This document shows, one piece after another, positions 2,049 to 32,382 of a DNA stretch of 64,000 bases. This stretch comes from Arachidicoccus soli (GTDB lineage Bacteria > Bacteroidota > Bacteroidia > Chitinophagales > Chitinophagaceae), in NCBI RefSeq assembly GCF_003600625.1, contig NZ_CP032489.1, positions 1,798,001 through 1,862,000 on the forward strand. Direction: 5' to 3'. Below the pieces are notes generated by a model. It was not told where the DNA came from and searched no databases. It saw only the letters and a list, made by a program, of their open reading frames with translations. The translations under genes and the position numbers were made by a program. Numbering within the stretch: the stretch's first letter is position 1; each line of letters begins with the position of its first letter.

Positions 2049-2125
2049 GTGAACTACCCATTCACGCAAAGCGATGAGTGGGCTTCTCAACCCATACGCA
2101 CAGCCTAATGGCTCACGTTAACGGT
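2049..2125 (-). ncRNA. Probable omega RNA / RE structure at the 3' end of tnpB
   Basis: TnpB nucleases use a guide RNA whose scaffold overlaps the 3' end of tnpB and the right end of the element. Here the minus strand after and across the tnpB stop has a hairpin (ATGGGTTGAGAAGCCCA-type arms) followed by the 2057-2082 palindrome. The same string is conserved at 12226-12300 although no tnpB is there, which argues for selection on or movement of the RNA/DNA structure rather than the protein frame. The guide would begin at 2048 and read leftwards. Boundaries at the 5' side are approximate. Confidence 0.5.
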
Positions 2126-3238
2126 TGAAGGCTTTATCCGAAGCCCGAATGTTTTAATATTCAAAGCGGCATTTTCATCTCTTTCGTGATGAGTGCCGCA
2201 TGATTGACAAGTCCAAGACCTGTCCTTCAAACTTAGTTCTTTGAAAATATGTCCGCAATGTGAACACAATTTGGACGATGGTTGAAACCTGCCGATGTAC
2301 AGGATATTCTTTCCGTACCATTCGGCTTTGTATTCCAGCATCGTTTTGAATTTGTGCCATCCTACTTCACCAATAGCAAGGGCAAGTTTTTCGTTTTGCA
2401 TCATGCCTTTGATGTTTAAATCTTCAAGGCAAATGCTGTTGTAAGAACGAATGATGTGCGTACTTGCTTTGTGTAAGTAGTCCTCACGTTGGTTTTTGAT
2501 GTGCTCGTGAAGTTTAGCAACTACCAGTTTTTGTTTCAGGAAGTTTTTGCTTTGCTCCTTCGCACCCCTTTTAAATCTACGGCTCAACTTTCTTTGTTCT
2601 ACCCGAAGCCTTCTAAGATTATTTCTTAGATGCTTTGGATTGTCAAAGGTTGTTCCGTCTGAAAGGGTAGCAAAAGTTTTCACGCCCATATCTATTCCAA
2701 CGGTTGTTTTCTGCATTACAGGTTTTTTCTTCGGCAACTGCTTTTGGTTCTCAACCAGTATGCTTACGAAGTATTTGCCTGTTGAAGTCCTGGAAACGGT
2801 TACTGTTTTAATCTCGCCTTTAAATTGGCGATGAAAAATACAGGTTACATTTTTCAGCTTCGGGAGGAAGATGATACTGTTCTCAAAGTCTGTTTTCACA
2901 CCTTGCGGAAACTGTATGGATTGTTTGCGATGCTTTGATTTAAACTTAGGGAAGCCGCCACCTTTAAAGAATTGGGTGTAGGCATTGTCTAAGTTTCTCA
3001 AACTCATTTGAAGCGTTTGTGAAGGGCACTCCTGCAACCATGTTGCTTCGGTGTCTTTCAGTTCCTTCATCTGGTTCGCAAGGTCTATACAGGTTAAATG
3101 CTTACGTGCGGTAGTCCATGCTTGCATTTTTGTTTCCAGTCCAAGATTGAAAACAAAACGACAGCTACCAAAGAACTTAGCCAGTTGTTGCTTTTGTTCT
3201 TCGGTAGGCAGGAGGCAATATTTGTAGGCTTTGAGCAT
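2105..3238 (-). CDS. tnpB: IS605 TnpB RNA-guided nuclease
   Basis: A 377-residue TnpB (OrfB) with all parts of the family: N-terminal OrfB helix-turn-helix (MLKAYKYCLLPTEEQ), RuvC-I GIDMGVK (Asp183), RuvC-II CLEDLN (Glu272), a four-Cys zinc ribbon (CSHC 325-328, CQSC 344-347) inserted before RuvC-III HERDENAALN (Asp354). All three RuvC acidic residues are present, so it should be catalytically competent as an omega-RNA-guided DNA endonuclease that favours element retention. It is transcribed away from tnpA from a shared 96-bp intergenic region. No frameshift or truncation. Confidence 0.95.
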   Translation of the reverse strand: MLKAYKYCLLPTEEQKQQLAKFFGSCRFVFNLGLETKMQAWTTARKHLTCIDLANQMKELKDTEATWLQECPSQTLQMSLRNLDNAYTQFFKGGGFPKFKSKHRKQSIQFPQGVKTDFENSIIFLPKLKNVTCIFHRQFKGEIKTVTVSRTSTGKYFVSILVENQKQLPKKKPVMQKTTVGIDMGVKTFATLSDGTTFDNPKHLRNNLRRLRVEQRKLSRRFKRGAKEQSKNFLKQKLVVAKLHEHIKNQREDYLHKASTHIIRSYNSICLEDLNIKGMMQNEKLALAIGEVGWHKFKTMLEYKAEWYGKNILYIGRFQPSSKLCSHCGHIFKELSLKDRSWTCQSCGTHHERDENAALNIKTFGLRIKPSTVNVSH

Positions 3239-3334
3239 TGATGTAAAGGTAATGATTTTTCTTACAAAACCAGATACGTTTTTGTAAACCCTTCCCTATT
3301 CAGGTAAAAAGGGATTTACAAAAACTACGCTACT

Positions 3335-3745
3335 ATGTCTCAAAAATCTAACTACCAGTCCACCAATCGTTCAAAGCACTACTTAAAACGCCATCTCATT
3401 TTTGTTTGTAAGTACCGTAAGGCAATGCTTGTCGGTCAGCTTAATGATGATGTTAAGCGTATCTTTCTCTCTATCGCTGAAAATTCAGATTTTGAAATTG
3501 AAGTGATGGAGACAGATACAGACCATGTACATTTCCTTATTCGCTACATTCCTCGCCTGTCTATTGTGCAAATTGTTCGCAGGTTAAAGCAGGAAAGCAC
3601 TCGTCAGTTGTGGTTGCTGCATGGCAAAATACTCCGTAAGCAATATTGGTATCAGAAATTACTTTGGTCGGATGGCTATTTCGTTTGTTCCATTGGTGAA
3701 GCATCACCTGAAACAGTCAGGCAATACATCCTTTCACAAGGTTAA
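3335..3745 (+). CDS. tnpA: IS200-type Y1 transposase TnpA
   Basis: A 136-residue HUH single-strand transposase. The metal-binding HUH motif is HVH at residues 64-66 and the nucleophilic tyrosine is Tyr131 in ETVRQYILSQG, the normal C-terminal position. It would cut and rejoin single-stranded DNA at the element's hairpin ends during lagging-strand synthesis. Divergent from tnpB, with the LE palindrome 45 bp beyond its stop codon. Complete and in family length range. Confidence 0.93.
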   Translation: MSQKSNYQSTNRSKHYLKRHLIFVCKYRKAMLVGQLNDDVKRIFLSIAENSDFEIEVMETDTDHVHFLIRYIPRLSIVQIVRRLKQESTRQLWLLHGKILRKQYWYQKLLWSDGYFVCSIGEASPETVRQYILSQG

Positions 3746-19633: not shown

Positions 19634-20398
19634 TTACTTATATTCATTCTGCAATTCCCGTAGCACTATATTAGCCTGCTTTAATAATGAATCTGAATAA
19701 GCAACATTATAAATTCGTATAAACCTTGACCGTACCAATTCAGCATACTCATTAAACAGCGTTTTATCATAACTTAATAAAGGCGGGTTGGTATTGATGA
19801 AAGAATCAATTCTTGCCTGGTTAGGGGAAAAACCGTTCTTTTGTGCTATATCATTCGCCATTTCATTATACTTAAATTCAAATATCTGTGCCCTGGTTTT
19901 ACGAACATCTGTATAAACGTCGCGGTTCATATCATCAATGGCTAGCAATGAACGGCATAGCCTATCGTATTTTTCTACGTTGGTTGCAATTTCCGGTTTA
20001 TAAAAAGACAGGGAGCCAGAGCTTTTCATTTGCTGAAACGTAGCATCATCCGGAATAAAAATATGCCGCGCACCGCCCCATAATCCATACCAATATAATT
20101 TACCTGTTGGAATATTTTTGAGATCATTTGCAGTAACCAAATTCATAAAGGAATCTATGTTATCTGAAGCTATAGTATAATATTTATTGTAGCTTATAAT
20201 TTGTGATGTATCAGCTTTAAGATCATCTATCATAGATGCTGCAAAGCTCTTTGCACGCTGATGTTGGGATATATCTTCACGGATATTTTCTGCAATGAAT
20301 CCCATGATTACCGCCAGAAATATCATTATAAATTCCAAAAAATATTCTTTGAAATTTTTCTTCTTATGATGAAGATCGGGATGATGATGGACTTCCAT
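19634..20398 (-). CDS. MEVHHH family single-pass membrane protein (paralog C)
   Basis: A 254-residue protein of unknown function. A His-rich cytosolic N-terminus (MEVHHHPDLHHKKK) leads into one membrane helix (FKEYFLEFIMIFLAVIMGFIAENI) and a helical, charged ~210-residue domain (DDLKADTSQIISYNKYY...). The first ~50 residues are near-identical in the two neighbouring paralogs, while the remainder has diverged strongly. Third gene of the tandem array, 11 bp after paralog B. The family is common in Bacteroidota with no assigned activity; the His cluster suggests metal binding, which is inference. Confidence 0.8.
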   Translation of the reverse strand: MEVHHHPDLHHKKKNFKEYFLEFIMIFLAVIMGFIAENIREDISQHQRAKSFAASMIDDLKADTSQIISYNKYYTIASDNIDSFMNLVTANDLKNIPTGKLYWYGLWGGARHIFIPDDATFQQMKSSGSLSFYKPEIATNVEKYDRLCRSLLAIDDMNRDVYTDVRKTRAQIFEFKYNEMANDIAQKNGFSPNQARIDSFINTNPPLLSYDKTLFNEYAELVRSRFIRIYNVAYSDSLLKQANIVLRELQNEYK

Positions 20399-20409
20399 TA
20401 GATATGAAT

Positions 20410-21198
20410 TTATTCATTACTTAAATGATATTCTTTATTGATGACTTGTATGAGCGAAGCCGCAGCTTTTTTCTGTTCCTGCAATATTCCAGCTTCGCCA
20501 ATAAAAGTGGACTTTCGTTCGTGCAAATAAAATATCAGCAGATTAATTTTGTCCGGATCATGATTTCTTAATTGCGGATTACCTGCCGGTTTTATGAGAT
20601 TTGAAAATATGGAAGCGGAAGTATCTACTGAAAAATCTGAACTGCCGATTTTAACCATGGTGTTAAAAACTGAAGCATCAAAAAGATTACCGAGCAAAGG
20701 ATAGTAAAGATCGGCTTCATGCATGTCAACCGGCGTTAGCGCTTCGTAACTACCAATAATTTTCTCAAACTTTATTAACCCATCAATTACTTTTCTATTG
20801 GTTATCAGCCTTAGATTTCCTGAATGTTCCAGCTCTGTTATAGTGGTGTTGGTTGGTTCAAACAATCTTACTCTTGTTGAACTTCTTGCTAAATAATAAA
20901 GGCCGCTTCCGTTGGAAGCTAGTCCTGGCTTTTGCAACATAGAGATCAATGAATCAAATTGATTGATGCGAAAAAATAAAGTAGGTATAAAATCATTGAT
21001 TGCTAACGTATCTGCAACAAGATCTTTTTTTATGTTGATAACATATTCTTTTCCTTTTGACCTGTCACTCAAATTTTCACGAATATTCTCTGCAATAAAA
21101 CCAAGAAACACAGCAAGAAATATCATGATGAATTCCAAAAAATATTCTTTCCATTTTTTGGGTTGGTGGTGCAGGTCGGGATGATGATGTACTTCCAT
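20410..21198 (-). CDS. MEVHHH family single-pass membrane protein (paralog B)
   Basis: A 262-residue paralog: MEVHHHPDLHHQPKKWKEYF, membrane helix LEFIMIFLAVFLGFIAENI, then a charged helical domain (KEYVINIKKDLVADTLAINDFIPTLFFRI ... TTITELEHSGNLRLITNRKVIDGLIKFEKIIGSYEAL). The motif 'L..SGN(L/W)RLI.N..V...I..Y' occurs in paralog A as well (NTGEWRLIRNKQVNDSILEYY) and in C as SSGSLSFYKPEIATNVEKYD, showing that all three share the full domain. Middle gene of the array. Function unknown. Confidence 0.8.
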   Translation of the reverse strand: MEVHHHPDLHHQPKKWKEYFLEFIMIFLAVFLGFIAENIRENLSDRSKGKEYVINIKKDLVADTLAINDFIPTLFFRINQFDSLISMLQKPGLASNGSGLYYLARSSTRVRLFEPTNTTITELEHSGNLRLITNRKVIDGLIKFEKIIGSYEALTPVDMHEADLYYPLLGNLFDASVFNTMVKIGSSDFSVDTSASIFSNLIKPAGNPQLRNHDPDKINLLIFYLHERKSTFIGEAGILQEQKKAAASLIQVINKEYHLSNE

Positions 21199-21285
21199 TT
21201 TTTTTTATTTCTGATGTTGTGATGCCTTTTGATTGATTTTAATTTCCTCATTCACAATTCACTTGTTTTTCATTCTTCGCTTTTG

Positions 21286-21354
21286 TCAAAGTCTGCAATT
21301 ACATTCTTTGCGTTTGCCAATCGTATCGCTGTGTCGGTGATGATGTACTTCCAT
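21286..21354 (-). pseudogene. Decayed 5' end of a MEVHHH family gene
   Basis: Between paralogs A and B the minus strand reads ATG GAA GTA CAT CAT CAC (MEVHHH) and then RHSDTIGKRKECNCRL before a stop. The first 18 bases are those of the intact paralogs. It is a broken fourth copy or the start of a failed duplication. Confidence 0.5.
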
Positions 21355-21378
21355 GTTTTGTTTATAAGCTGAATTTTT

Positions 21379-22134
21379 TTATTGCTTAACACGGTAATGT
21401 TGAGCAATTAGTTTTTTGAGCCTCGTCGCTTCGTTCCGCAAATCAATCACTTGGTTTTTAAAGCCTTTGTGTATTCCTTTTATATCGCTTATTTCCAGGA
21501 GACAGTTGTTTATTACATCCGGGTTTACCGATTTAAGATACAGGTTATCATGCGGATGAATGATGTTATCCGAATTTTTTTCTGTCACTTTATCCCAGTC
21601 ATCACTTTTAAGAAGCGGAGCATACAAATCCCTAAGCTTTCCTTTTTGCATCAAAGAATATTCCTGCAATGCCGCAATCGTTTCTACATTCTTGTAATAT
21701 TCTAAAATACTGTCATTTACCTGTTTGTTGCGTATCAGTCTCCATTCGCCTGTATTCCGCAATTGAAAAATAGTTCTTTGGTTTACAAAATTTTTAATCC
21801 CCAACTGGCGAATTAAAAAGCGGAAGTCAACATAAATGTCATTTGCTTTTGTTTTTAGCGTAACATTTTTCAGTAGTAGCTTTAACGAATCAGATACATT
21901 TATATCCATCTGAATCCAGTCTGATAATGCCGGCAAATTCTTTTGATCCTGGCTCAGGTCTTCATAAAAAGATTGTATATACACTTTTTCATGGTTGTGC
22001 TCAACAAAACTTTCTCTTATTTGCTCGGCAAAAAATCCCATCGTTACCGCCAGAAATATCATTAAAAATTCCAGAAAATATTCTTTCCACTTTTTGGGTT
22101 GGTGGTGCAGGTCGGGATGATGATGTACTTCCAT
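21379..22134 (-). CDS. MEVHHH family single-pass membrane protein (paralog A)
   Basis: A 251-residue paralog and first gene of the array: MEVHHHPDLHHQPKKWKEYF, membrane helix LEFLMIFLAVTMGFFAEQI, then the charged helical domain (ESFVEHNHEKVYIQSFYEDLSQDQKNLPALSDWIQMDINV ... NTGEWRLIRNKQVNDSILEYYKNVETI). The C-terminal part carries coiled-coil-like heptads (NEATRLKKLIAQHY). Shares almost identical first 60 bp with paralogs B and C. Function unknown. Confidence 0.8.
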   Translation of the reverse strand: MEVHHHPDLHHQPKKWKEYFLEFLMIFLAVTMGFFAEQIRESFVEHNHEKVYIQSFYEDLSQDQKNLPALSDWIQMDINVSDSLKLLLKNVTLKTKANDIYVDFRFLIRQLGIKNFVNQRTIFQLRNTGEWRLIRNKQVNDSILEYYKNVETIAALQEYSLMQKGKLRDLYAPLLKSDDWDKVTEKNSDNIIHPHDNLYLKSVNPDVINNCLLEISDIKGIHKGFKNQVIDLRNEATRLKKLIAQHYRVKQ

Positions 22135-26072: not shown

Positions 26073-26594
26073 TTGGGCATAATATTTGCCGGATATTCGC
26101 TACAAAAACGATACATTTTGCGTCAAAGATTTGAACAACAATTAGACTTTCGCATCACGGCAATTAGCGAGATTAAAATATCTACCAAAAGCCGGGACGA
26201 ACTACCACCAACGCTAAGAGCTTTGCAATATATTTTTGTAACGCCTGCCATAAACGAAAAAATATTTTTGCTATTGGAACAAAAAATTTGCGCGGGGAAA
26301 AAGAAAATCGGCAGGCCGGGGATGGATTTGTGGCATGTGCTGGTATTGGCTGTAATCCGCCATGCACTTGACACCAACTGGGATAGGCTAACCCATATTT
26401 CCAACTACGATATACTCGTTCGCAACATTTTAGGTGTGCTACCGACCCTAGAGGAAAATGAATTTGAGTACCAAAATATATTGGACAATGTGAGCCAAAT
26501 AGATGATGAAATGTTGCAAAAAATAAACGACATAGTCGTAGAGGCAGGGCAGCAATTAGTAAAAAAAAGGAAACAAAAGAACCCTTACATTTAA
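26073..26594 (+). pseudogene. ISNCY-like transposase, N-terminal fragment
   Basis: N-terminal ~170 residues: RFEQQLDFRIT, SRDELPPTLRALQYIFVTPAINEKIF, then GRPGMDLWHVLVLAVIRHALDTNWDRLTHISNYDILVRNILGV, the conserved DNA-binding front end of the family. Start is a TTG at 26073 or, more likely, 26118. The frame ends after KKRKQKNPYI; the expected continuation (KEPLHLKTDSYALETNVHFP) lies in the -1 frame immediately after a run of eight A at 26561-26568, a possible slippery site. Confidence 0.75.
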
Positions 26595-26611
26595 AAACAG
26601 ATAGCTACGCT

Positions 26612-26872
26612 TTGGAAACCAATGTACACTTTCCAACCGATTTAAATTTACTTTGGGATAGCTGTCGTAAAAGTATTGATACCGTGTCAAAGTTGCATCA
26701 ATACACCGTTATATCAGGATGGAGGAAAATAAAAGGCATTCGCAAAACCATAAAATCGCAATTTAGAGCTACTTCACATCAAGTATTTAAAGGCAAAAAT
26801 GAAGCTCAGAAAAAGGCGATTGTAAAACAATATCTGCAACAAGCAAAACAAGTAGAACAAAAATGCGATTAG
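26612..26872 (+). pseudogene. ISNCY-like transposase, middle fragment
   Basis: About 86 residues with ETNVHFPTDLNLLWDSCRKSIDTV, the catalytic-core segment that carries the first DDE aspartate region. Its frame is open upstream of 26612 back to the A8 run, so it is not an independent gene. It stops at KQVEQKCD*, where the next fragment's ATG overlaps by 10 nt, again in the -1 frame. Confidence 0.7.
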
Positions 26873-27540
26873 CAGATTTAAAATACTACAACGACTGCAT
26901 TAAACTATTTTCAAATCAGATAGAACGCAGAATCCTCAAGCGCGAAGCGATACCATCCGATGAAAAGATATACTCTATTTTTGAACCCCACAGCAATTGG
27001 ATAAGCAAAGGCAAAGCACACAAAAAAGTAGAGATAGGCGAGTTGATATTAATCACTACTGATCAATATCAATACATTGTAGATTACAAAATAATGTTTG
27101 GGCAAAAGGATGCAACGCAGATACCCTCGCTATTGCAGCGAATAGAAGAAAAATATGAATACCGGGAAATATACAGCCATAGTTTTGACAAAGGCTATTG
27201 GAGCAAGCATAATTGGACATTATTGGAAACCGGTAAAATACAAAATCCGGTATTGCCCAAGCGGGGCAAACCCAATAAGGCAGAAGTAGAACGTGAAGCC
27301 GGCAAAGGCTTTAAGCAGCTTCGCAATAAACACAGTGCGGTAGAAAGCAACATCAATATGCTGGAGCATCACGGATTAAACCGATGCAGAGATAAAGGCA
27401 TCACAGGCTTCAAACGCTGTGTGGGATTGAGTATTTTGGCCTACAACCTGCATATAATGGGCAACCAACTACAGGCCATTGAAAAAGCAAAAGCAAAAGC
27501 AAAAAAGAAGCTGCTGCTCTTACGGGGAGTAGCCGCCTAA
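26863..27540 (+). pseudogene. ISNCY-like transposase, C-terminal fragment
   Basis: 225 residues with EKIYSIFEPHSNWISKGKAHKKVEIGELILITTDQY, HSFDKGYWSKHN and VEREAGKGFKQLRNKHSAVESNINMLEHHGLNRCRDKG, the DDE catalytic end of the family. The tail is Lys/Ala-rich (EKAKAKAKKK) from a short AAAGC-like repeat. Whether the three frames are joined by programmed -1 frameshifts or are mutations cannot be told here; two shifts make decay likelier. Confidence 0.75.
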
Positions 27541-29251: not shown

Positions 29252-29544
29252 AAGTATAGTTTTGAATTTATAAGTTGGTAAAGAATACCTTGAGAAATTG
29301 AGGTTATAATTACTACCAGCCGCAAACATTGCTCAATTTATAATAAAATCTGGAGTTTCCCCAAAATTTCCTCGATTATTTCTACACCTTAGTGTCGGCG
29401 GAGGTTTAGGCGGGATTAGAAGTGTAAGCATATTATTTTTCAAGCATTTGGTTTGTCTGCCAATTTTTGTGTTGAAAAAAGATTCCTCAAAAAAATGCAT
29501 CCACTTTCGTATAATGCAGTATCAATAAACATTTAACTACGATT
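29252..29544. other. Spacer between permease and transposase-HTH chimera
   Basis: About 290 bp between divergent genes. The last part just upstream of the chimera presumably is the left end of the donor IS, but no inverted repeat partner exists because the right side of that IS is gone. No gene seen. Confidence 0.4.
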
Positions 29545-30132
29545 ATGGATGCAAACTCTTCTGCTATCAGCCGTTTCAAGGCACAAGCTAATAAATTTTC
29601 GGGAATCTTGAGCAAGGGCTTAGGCAAAACTACCGGTAGGCTTATCAAAGAGCTTATTTACGGCATACAGGCTTGCAAAGACATTAAAATATCCAACATA
29701 GCCCGAAGCCTGCAAGAGGATATTAAACTGATAAAAACGGAGGATAGGCTGTGCCGGAATTTGGCAGCCGAAGATTTTAGTAATCATATCAACGAACAAA
29801 TCATCCGCCTTGGCGATGATAAAATTACTGATGAAATGGTAATAGCCATTGATTTAAGCGATCCCAACTTTGACGTAGAAATGATTTGTAGAAAAATAGC
29901 AATGAGCCATACTGCGCTTTACAAAAAGGTAAAATCTATCACTGGACTTACTATTAACGAAATTGTCAAAAACGTTCGGTTAAAAAGGGCGGCAGCTTTG
30001 TTGGCAGAAAACAATTATACTGTTTACGAAGTCGCTGATATGGTGGGCTATAATGACAGTAAGTACTTTAGCCGAGAATTTAAAAAGAAGTTTGGCATTT
30101 CTCCAAAGGATTCAAAAAAACGACCCGATTAG
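29545..30132 (+). CDS. Chimera: IS transposase N-terminus fused to an AraC-type HTH
   Basis: A 195-residue frame joining two unrelated parts. Residues 1-105 (MDANSSAISRFKAQANKFSGILSKG, KTTGRLIKELIYGIQACKDIKISNIARSLQEDIKLIKTEDRLCRNLA, DDKITDEMVIAIDLSD) match the start of a DDE IS transposase up to its first catalytic-aspartate strand. Residues ~106-195 (NFDVEMICRKIAMSHTALYKKVKSITGLTINEIVKNVRLKRAAALLAE, YEVADMVGYNDSKYFSREFKKKFGISPK) are a complete double-HTH AraC domain like the C-terminus of a hybrid two-component system. The join is in frame at DLSDP. May be a non-functional recombination product or a new regulator. Confidence 0.75.
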   Translation: MDANSSAISRFKAQANKFSGILSKGLGKTTGRLIKELIYGIQACKDIKISNIARSLQEDIKLIKTEDRLCRNLAAEDFSNHINEQIIRLGDDKITDEMVIAIDLSDPNFDVEMICRKIAMSHTALYKKVKSITGLTINEIVKNVRLKRAAALLAENNYTVYEVADMVGYNDSKYFSREFKKKFGISPKDSKKRPD

Positions 30133-30180
30133 CCCTATCTATTAATTGTTTAAAGGGATGAATTCCAGCAAAAAATTAGC

Positions 30181-30188
30181 TACTTTTG
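30181..30188 (+). promoter_or_regulatory. -7 promoter element of aguB
   Basis: TACTTTTG, exact TAnnTTTG, 22 bp before the aguB ATG. No convincing -33 TTG at the usual distance. Confidence 0.45.
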
Positions 30189-30210
30189 CAGCACTTAAAA
30201 TGTTGAAATA

Positions 30211-31086
30211 ATGGCGAAAGTAAATGTAGGTCTTGTGCAGATGTCTTGCACCGGCAGCAAAGAAGCAAATCTGCAAAAAGCAATTGAAAAAACAAGAGAA
30301 GCTGCGGCCAAAGGAGCACAGATAGTGTGCTTACAAGAACTTTTTACTTCTTTATATTTTTGTGATGTAGAAGACTACGAAAATTTTAAACTGGCAGAAT
30401 CTATTCCCGGAGCATCTACCGATGCATTAAGCGAAGTTGCTAAAGAATTAGGGGTGGTAATCATCGCTTCACTCTTTGAAAAAAGAGCACAAGGGCTTTA
30501 TCATAATACTACGGCCGTTTTAGATGCTGATGGAAAATATTTGGGCAAATACCGCAAGATGCATATTCCTGACGATCCGGCATTTTACGAAAAGTTTTAT
30601 TTTACACCGGGGGATTTAGGCTATAAGGTATTTGAAACAAAGTTTGCCAAAATTGGTGTGCTTATCTGCTGGGATCAATGGTACCCGGAAGCAGCACGTA
30701 TAACGGCTTTGATGGGTGCAGAGATCCTGTTTTATCCTACCGCCATTGGCTGGGCAACTACTCAGGATGAAGCGACTAATAAAGAACAGTACGAAGGTTG
30801 GCAAACGATTCAACGTAGCCATGCTGTAGCGAATGGTCTACACGTAGTGAGTGTAAACCGCGTAGGATTTGAACAAGATGGTTTGATGAAATTTTGGGGC
30901 GGTTCTTTTGTAGCGAACCCTTTTGGTGCATTACTGTATAAAGCCTCTCACGAAGAAGAAGAAACAACGGTTGTGGAATTGGATTTGGCTAAATCCGACC
31001 ATTACCGGACACATTGGCCTTTTATGCGTGATAGAAGAATTGATAGCTATGCTCCTATTGTGAAGCGATTTATTGATGAGGATTAG
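30211..31086 (+). CDS. aguB: N-carbamoylputrescine amidase
   Basis: Hydrolyses N-carbamoylputrescine to putrescine, CO2 and ammonia. 291 residues of the nitrilase superfamily with the catalytic triad Glu43 (LQELF), Lys116 (YRKMHIP) and Cys153 (LICWDQWYPE); the DPAFYEKFYFTPGD and HWPFMRDRRIDSY stretches are characteristic of AguB. Directly upstream of agmatine deiminase, with which it completes the arginine-decarboxylation route to putrescine. Confidence 0.95.
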   Translation: MAKVNVGLVQMSCTGSKEANLQKAIEKTREAAAKGAQIVCLQELFTSLYFCDVEDYENFKLAESIPGASTDALSEVAKELGVVIIASLFEKRAQGLYHNTTAVLDADGKYLGKYRKMHIPDDPAFYEKFYFTPGDLGYKVFETKFAKIGVLICWDQWYPEAARITALMGAEILFYPTAIGWATTQDEATNKEQYEGWQTIQRSHAVANGLHVVSVNRVGFEQDGLMKFWGGSFVANPFGALLYKASHEEEETTVVELDLAKSDHYRTHWPFMRDRRIDSYAPIVKRFIDED

Positions 31087-31120
31087 AAGACAGGAATACT
31101 GAATTTAGGAATTAGTATAG

Positions 31121-31157
31121 ATTGCCAGGTCGTCGTCCCTCCTTCTCGCAATGACGG
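31121..31157. repeat. REP-like intergenic palindrome fragment
   Basis: Between aguB and aguA, ATTGCCAGGTCGTCGTCCC then TTCTCGCAATGACGG carries the CGTCATTGCGAG motif (complement) widely repeated in intergenic DNA of Bacteroidota. A single copy was seen in this window. Confidence 0.4.
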
Positions 31158-31266
31158 AGCCCTAGGTTTAGGTCATTTCTACCCAGACGAGAATCATACA
31201 AAATAAAAAATACCTGCAAGATTTTCATTATTCGTAATAGATATAAAATATTAAAATAAAACGACA

Positions 31267-32382
31267 TTGGATAATAAAAACACAGCTTTTAATAACCCTT
31301 CGGACGCTCTTACGAAAGACTTATCGTCTCCCCTACTTACGGACTTACGCCCCAAATCCCTCGGCTATTATTTTCCTGCTGAGTTTGAAAAGCATGATGC
31401 TACTTGGCTGAGCTGGCCGCATAAAGAAGCTTCTTGGCCTGAAAAGCTGGATGCTGTTTATCCTTTTTATAGTCAGTTTGTAAAACAATTGACAAAGAGT
31501 GAAGCGGTGCGCATCAACGTAAATAACGAATCGATGAAAGCCTTTGCTATCAGCCATTTAGAGAAAGCAGATGCGGATCTGTCTAAAATAGAATTTTATT
31601 TAAACCCTACGAATGATGCTTGGTGCAGAGACCACGGTCCCGCATTCCTAATCAATCCGAAAGCAGCGATAAAAAAAGTAATCGTCGATTGGAATTACAA
31701 TGCCTGGGGCAATAAATATCCGCCATATGATTTAGACGATATCGTACCTACTTTGATTGGAAAAGCATTGGATATTCCTGTTTTTCATCCCGGGATCGTC
31801 ATGGAAGGCGGCTCGGTAGAATTTAATGGCAAAGGAACCATACTCACCTCCTCTTCTTGCTTGCTGAATCCTAACAGAAATCCGCATTTAAATCAGCAAC
31901 AGATTGAAGAATATCTCTATAATTATTATGGAGCAGAACAAGTTTTGTGGGTGGCGGATGGCATCGTGGGGGATGATACTGACGGGCATATCGATGATAC
32001 TATTCGTTTTGTAAATGAAGATACGGTGTTGACTGTGGTGGAAAAAAATAAATCGGATGAAAACTATGAATTGCTGCAACATAATTTAAAGCAACTGCAC
32101 TCCATGCGTTTGCTCAATGGAAAGCAATTGAATATTGCAGAACTGCCCATGCCGAATCCTGTAGTTTGGAATGGACAAAGGTTGCCGGCTTCTTATGCCA
32201 ATTTTTATATTGCGAATAAACATGTAATTGTACCCACCTATCGCTGCACGCAAGACGAAGCAGCTTTACAAATTATTCAAGCAGCTTTTCCTGCACGTGA
32301 AGTCGTAGGCATAGATTCAACAGAAATTATTTGGGGATTGGGAAGCTTTCATTGCCTGAGCCAGCAAGAGCCGAGTGTGTAA
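31267..32382 (+). CDS. aguA: Agmatine deiminase
   Basis: Converts agmatine to N-carbamoylputrescine. 371 residues of the guanidino-group-modifying fold: FPAEFEKHDATWLSWPHKEASWP at the N-terminus, NDAWCRDHGPAFLI, EGGSVEFNGKGTIL, GDDTDGHIDDTIRF and the nucleophilic Cys363 in GLGSFHCLSQQEP. The start is a TTG at 31267 (no in-frame ATG before the conserved region); a short N-terminal extension relative to other AguA is present. Follows aguB after 180 bp that contain a REP-like sequence, so it may have its own promoter. Closed by a strong terminator. Confidence 0.95.
   Translation: MDNKNTAFNNPSDALTKDLSSPLLTDLRPKSLGYYFPAEFEKHDATWLSWPHKEASWPEKLDAVYPFYSQFVKQLTKSEAVRINVNNESMKAFAISHLEKADADLSKIEFYLNPTNDAWCRDHGPAFLINPKAAIKKVIVDWNYNAWGNKYPPYDLDDIVPTLIGKALDIPVFHPGIVMEGGSVEFNGKGTILTSSSCLLNPNRNPHLNQQQIEEYLYNYYGAEQVLWVADGIVGDDTDGHIDDTIRFVNEDTVLTVVEKNKSDENYELLQHNLKQLHSMRLLNGKQLNIAELPMPNPVVWNGQRLPASYANFYIANKHVIVPTYRCTQDEAALQIIQAAFPAREVVGIDSTEIIWGLGSFHCLSQQEPSV

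What the first reader, a model, noticed from the sequence alone, without database searches (positions are those of the whole stretch)
29545..30132. In-frame fusion of an IS transposase N-terminus to an AraC DNA-binding domain
Residues 1-105 are a transposase front end stopping right at its first catalytic-aspartate strand (VIAIDLSD); the rest is a full AraC double HTH like that at the end of hybrid two-component regulators. The join falls at DLSDP, a residue string natural to both parents (transposase ..IDLSD.. and AraC ..LSDPNFD..), suggesting recombination at microhomology. The product keeps a promoter-proximal start from the IS and an intact DNA-binding domain, so it could be a newborn regulator without a sensor.
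Basis: partly seen in the sequence, partly recalled or inferred. Interest (0 to 1): 0.6.

Follow-up and report, generated by a model that had tools for sequence, protein, structure and literature searches.

The report
Broken transposon fused to regulator tail
A damaged jumping gene has been joined in frame to the tail end of a broken sugar-sensing regulator, most likely by a single recent deletion; it looks like genomic debris, and nothing found here shows that it is a working new regulator.

Summary
The in-frame chimera is real. Window 29350-29853 is the left 504 bp of a 1501-bp insertion sequence (IS) with four intact copies in the same genome, each with a 7-9 bp target duplication. It is joined in frame at 29853/29854 to the last 92 codons of a hybrid two-component regulator (HTCS); the nearest relative found is a 1371-aa HTCS, 66% identical. 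No remnant of the missing IS part or of a close parent HTCS was found in this genome, which fits one deletion.

Intact IS copies read VIAIDPGD, not VIAIDLSD; likely homology at the join is 0-2 bases. The DNA-binding domain is incomplete: the lead segment, strongly conserved in 29 HTCS relatives, is replaced by transposase residues.

The fusion is young: two private changes in 504 bp, the only coding one silent. An open frame is therefore likely without selection (P 0.59-0.93). The join was found in none of the other genomes searched. Ordinary IS-associated debris; a function is possible but unsupported.

The parts
29350..29853 (+). Left-end fragment (504 bp) of a 1501-bp IS, with its intact left inverted end
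   Evidence: 99% identical to the left ends of four intact copies; element length, ends and 7-9 bp target duplications; two private changes
29545..29853 (+). Codons 1-103 of the fusion: transposase N-terminus
   Evidence: 103 of 103 residues identical to four intact copies; one silent change, codon 84
29853..29854 (+). Fusion join
   Evidence: Identity with the intact IS ends after 29853; no sister strain to confirm
29854..30132 (+). Last 92 codons and stop of an HTCS-type regulator: AraC-type HTH tail without the lead segment of the domain
   Evidence: HTH_18; nearest relative 66-67% identical; lead segment absent
29545..30132 (+). Chimeric ORF, 195 aa

Best explanation
A 1501-bp IS lay upstream of, and in the same direction as, an HTCS gene. 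One deletion with little or no shared sequence at its ends ran from inside the transposase gene to just inside the HTCS DNA-binding domain. It removed the right 997 bp of the IS and the HTCS upstream of that point (about 3.8 kb, judged from the relative's length). By chance, about one in three, the ends joined in frame. The 195-aa ORF keeps the IS's own start codon and 195 bp of upstream IS sequence, so it may be expressed at a low level. It has no sensor, kinase, receiver or lead segment of the DNA-binding domain and is most likely non-functional debris evolving neutrally. Shown: both parts, the in-frame join, the four intact IS copies, and that no remnant of the lost IS part or of a close parent HTCS was found in this genome. 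Inferred: a single deletion, the original order, the size lost on the HTCS side, weak expression, and absence of function.
For: IS part and intact copies. HTCS part. No loose right-end IS piece in the own genome: four full copies, this fragment and one 39-bp match at 85%. No close HTCS in the own genome: among the 40 rows none exceeds 37% identity except this fragment at 65%. Lead segment of the DNA-binding domain lost. Youth and neutral survival of the frame. Join not found elsewhere.
Against: The tail shows no sign of decay: the frame is open, the HTH_18 match is near full length and the end branch in the tree is short, 0.11. AlphaFold2 still models the tail as an AraC-type domain. Relatives do not show an HTCS at this place, so the parent locus is not demonstrated. 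No second copy of the target duplication was found.
Confidence: 0.78

Rival explanations
1. Newborn functional regulator: made from IS signals, the receiver-free AraC tail binds the lost HTCS's old sites without a signal, and the transposase N-terminus serves as a tether or dimeriser.
For: Open frame with an IS start codon; HTH_18 near complete; the AlphaFold2 tail aligns to AraC-type domains (best 3oio, Z 13.4, rmsd 1.9, 98 aligned). In Bacteroides HTCSs the receiver domain restrains DNA binding, and AraC domains placed side by side by a fused dimerisation domain activate transcription (PMC11253607, abstract and passages).
Against: Lead segment lost: invariant F and L/I replaced by D and K. 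Not found elsewhere. Frame integrity expected by chance. N-terminal half not confidently folded, mostly pLDDT under 50. No expression data; crude promoter scans showed no plus-strand site in the IS part before the ATG.
Confidence: 0.12
2. Trans-acting inhibitor of the IS: the transposase N-terminus without its catalytic part competes at IS ends or poisons transposase.
For: 103 residues identical to the transposase of four intact copies. Inhibition by truncated transposases is recalled from IS50/Tn5, not from a call.
Against: What the N-terminus does was not tested: the transposase model failed (mean pLDDT 32.6) and no solved relative was found at E 1. No conservation.
Confidence: 0.05
3. Assembly error that joins an IS copy to an HTCS fragment.
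For: The IS is a near-identical repeat at four other places, a usual cause of misjoins.
Against: One contig of 4.10 Mb, completeness 100. The break lies inside the IS, not at its end. The fragment has two private changes absent from all four intact copies.
Confidence: 0.04

Closest known systems
Hybrid two-component system (HTCS) regulators of Bacteroidota
   Same: The tail is the C-terminal AraC-type part of such a protein
   Different: No sensor, kinase, receiver or lead segment of the DNA-binding domain
IS4/IS701-type DDE insertion sequences
   Same: Left end and transposase N-terminus of an element with weak similarity to these families
   Different: Right 997 bp and nearly all of the catalytic part are missing; family assignment is below the curated cut-offs
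Host-transposase fusions described in eukaryotes (recalled; listings)
   Same: A transposase N-terminal part fused in frame to part of a regulatory protein
   Different: No splicing, no conservation found, no evidence of function; here it arises by deletion
Truncated or chimeric pseudogenes left by IS-linked deletions (recalled)
   Same: Partial IS joined to a partial host gene, young, not found elsewhere
   Different: The join happens to be in frame

Membership tests
HTCS regulator | Sensor, histidine kinase and receiver domains in the same protein | tested here: not met
   Only AraC/HTH-type families match above their cut-offs in the 195-aa ORF; the relative has all of these domains
HTCS regulator | C-terminal AraC-type HTH pair related to HTCS tails | tested here: met
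AraC-type DNA-binding domain | Two HTH units | tested here: met
   HTH_18 positions 1-79 of 80
AraC-type DNA-binding domain | Conserved lead segment (helix) before the first HTH | tested here: not met
   Replaced by transposase residues; alignment to 12aw starts at 175 instead of 161
AraC-type DNA-binding domain | Specific DNA binding | not testable with these tools
   needs purified protein
IS4/IS701-type IS (parent element) | Inverted ends, target duplication, DDE transposase | tested here: inconclusive
   Ends and 7-9 bp duplications met; DDE_Tnp_1 21.9 bits against a cut-off of 23; NCBIfam matches all below cut-off
Functional host-transposase fusion | Conservation of the fusion across related genomes | tested here: not met
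   Join in 1 of 6 genus genomes, its own; an intact IS N-terminus in 1 of 394 family genomes, its own. Other strains of the same species were not available
Functional host-transposase fusion | Expression and activity | not testable with these tools
   no transcript or protein data

The most novel reading that the evidence does not exclude
A bacterial host-transposase fusion caught at birth: the transposase N-terminus binds or dimerises at IS ends (four intact elements plus its own), while the receiver-free AraC tail binds the lost regulator's sites constitutively, so that IS copies and the old target genes become linked in one regulon, or the fusion restrains the IS in trans.
Probability: 0.04. 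Interest if true: 0.6.

Novelty: new member of a known kind. Interest (0 to 1): 0.18.

Why it matters
It is a clean, recent example of how a deletion next to an IS can create an in-frame chimeric ORF that gene callers may annotate as an AraC-family regulator. It shows that an open frame in so young a fusion says little about function, and that a near-complete short profile match can hide the loss of a domain's lead segment. If it were functional it would be a rare bacterial counterpart of host-transposase fusions.

Tried and rejected
Microhomology DLSDP: rejected, since the intact IS reads IDPGD. Relatives' DNA at the join shares 2 bases in 18, 1 in 1 and 0 in 10 of 29. The parent's own DNA is lost, so 0-2 bases is an estimate.

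A conserved stand-alone transposase N-terminus: a Ferruginibacter MAG (L100) has a 106-aa ORF matching residues 1-102. It is a decayed IS copy, the match running on through stop codons, with another ORF starting directly after it, so it is not a parallel fusion. A nearly complete relative, L099, is a 427-aa frame, 81% identical.

Reciprocal product of an exchange: not found. Ancestral locus: four relatives' aguB regions of 18-19 kb had no ORF matching the fusion at E 1e-10. Twelve permease-homologue loci from other genomes, with only about 1.5 kb of flank and one at a contig end, showed no HTCS by eye from ORF starts (no profile search). Second copy of the target duplication: the 8 bases left of the IS occur once in 29301-31300.

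Structure: the transposase model, from three sequences, was useless (mean pLDDT 32.6), so the role of the N-terminus was not tested. In the fusion model the N-terminal half is mostly under pLDDT 50; its matches to unrelated helical proteins were set aside. Three rows (SoxS and two transcription complexes) align from model residues 46-47, i.e. they use a transposase helix in place of the lead helix; I did not rely on this.

One listed row (genome G014, 26% identity over residues 8-190, 353-aa frame) spans both halves. G014 has no match to the IS N-terminus, so I read it as an ordinary AraC protein without further test. The match list was cut. (plasmids): 859 records matched, all under 60% identity, 11 of them with one place covering 80% or more of the query; 15 rows were seen, with labels of AraC or two-component regulators, no label or no annotation; the rest were not looked at. 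One search warns that records of the window's own genome may be left out. No dN/dS was computed: one silent change in the IS coding part gives no power. Literature: searches were seen as listings only and one search returned nothing; the one paper opened is PMC11253607 (abstract, section list and 12 passages). I make no claim that such fusions are absent from print.

Full report
What is there. The window lies in a single-contig 4.10-Mb genome with completeness 100. The ORF at 29545-30132 is 195 aa. Its first 103 residues are identical to the N-terminus of a transposase that occurs intact four times in this genome, read as 428 aa. At the DNA level, 29350-29853 aligns to the left end of that element. 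The element is 1501 bp with ends CTGGAG...CTCCAG and target duplications of 8, 8, 9 and 7 bp in its four intact copies. The copies fall into two pairs, identical within a pair and differing at 10 positions between pairs. The fragment has the pair-B base at 29411 and two private changes, 29472 and 29796; the second is silent, codon 84. The family of the element is uncertain: DDE_Tnp_1 at 21.9 bits against a cut-off of 23, and IS701 and IS4 models well below their cut-offs.

The tail. Residues 104-195 match HTH_18 (positions 1-79 of 80, E 2.6e-19). In 394 family genomes 94, its own included, have a match at E 1e-20 or better. The best outside its own genome is G161, 67% over 85 aa (66%). That protein is 1371 aa with propeller repeats, Y_Y_Y, HisKA, HATPase, receiver and HTH_18. 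In a tree of 56 tails the fusion pairs with it (99/98), end branch 0.11 against 0.35. The tree has few columns and many unresolved forks. I gave it the hits among L006-L020, L025-L039 and L047-L075, after dropping short, stop-bearing or repeated ones.

The join. The intact transposase continues IDPGDITKPYAKA where the fusion reads IDLSDPNFDVEM. The residue before the join is H, N, Y or F in the 29 relatives and D in none, so D103 is the transposase's. Bases shared with the IS just before the join in the 29 HTCS-type relatives: 2 in 18, 1 in 1, 0 in 10.

What is missing from the DNA-binding domain. Just before the join the relatives have F in 29 of 29 (position -12), L or I in 29 of 29 (-11), and hydrophobic residues in 28, 29 and 28 of 29 (-8, -5, -4). 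In the fusion these are D, K, D, V and I: three of five are lost, two kept by chance. The intact relative aligns to the solved HTCS chain 12aw from its residue 161, the fusion only from 175. From recalled knowledge of AraC-type domains this segment is the lead helix. AlphaFold2 still folds the tail, block pLDDT 52-91 over residues 101-190, and it aligns to AraC-type domains, mostly from model residues 97-100 on. Folding is possible but not shown.

How it arose. A search of its own genome with the whole IS finds four full copies, this left fragment and one 39-bp match at 85%: no loose right-end piece. A search with the G161 HTCS gives 40 rows, none above 37% identity except this fragment at 65%: no close parent or loose front half. 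One deletion covering the right part of the IS and the front of the HTCS is the simplest account. Four relatives' aguB regions and twelve permease-homologue loci show no HTCS there (limits under Tried and rejected), so the parent locus remains inferred. An HTCS already truncated before the IS arrived is not excluded.

Is it conserved or selected? The junction DNA is found whole in 1 of 6 genus genomes, its own. The IS N-terminus is found in 2 of 394 family genomes: its own, and G214 with two stop-bearing copies. The full transposase is found in 1 of 395 phylum genomes, its own. A scan of genome contigs gave six loci, none matched across the join. These collections hold one genome per species, so other strains of this species were not tested. 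With 2 changes in 504 bp, a 588-bp frame stays open in 93, 74 or 59% of neutral simulations, with 0, 10 or 20% indels. With 3 changes the figures are 89, 63 and 45%. The open frame is thus weak evidence of selection at best.

Possible activity. In Bacteroides HTCSs the receiver domain restrains the DNA-binding domain, and breaking that contact raises DNA binding without phosphorylation (PMC11253607, abstract and passages). A receiver-free tail could bind constitutively if it folds. Against this stand the lost lead segment and the lack of any expression, target or conservation evidence. A crude sigma-70-type scan lists no plus-strand site in the IS part before the ATG, and a recalled Bacteroidota motif gave nothing convincing there. 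Both are weak tests.

Verdict. A real, young, in-frame chimeric ORF, most likely made by a deletion next to or within an IS, and most likely debris.

Noticed in passing
window 26073-27540: A second, broken IS: three ORFs match successive parts (positions 2-132, 140-225 and 245-443 of 444) of one ISNCY-family transposase model, so the gene is split by frame breaks.
   Followed up: partly
window 2105-3745: IS200/IS605-type pair: TnpB-like RNA-guided nuclease on the minus strand and a TnpA transposase on the plus strand.
   Followed up: no
window 19634-22134: Three neighbouring ORFs with near-identical starts (MEVHHHPDLHH...), a tandem family of 251-262 aa with no NCBIfam match at E 0.001.
   Followed up: no
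window 30211-32382: Carbon-nitrogen hydrolase and agmatine-deiminase-like gene (PAD_porph) side by side, kept close together in four relatives; the fusion ends 78 bp before this pair.
   Followed up: partly
L100:8001-9336: Decayed copy of a related IS in a Ferruginibacter MAG, followed directly by another ORF that reads like a transposase of another kind (by eye).
   Followed up: yes
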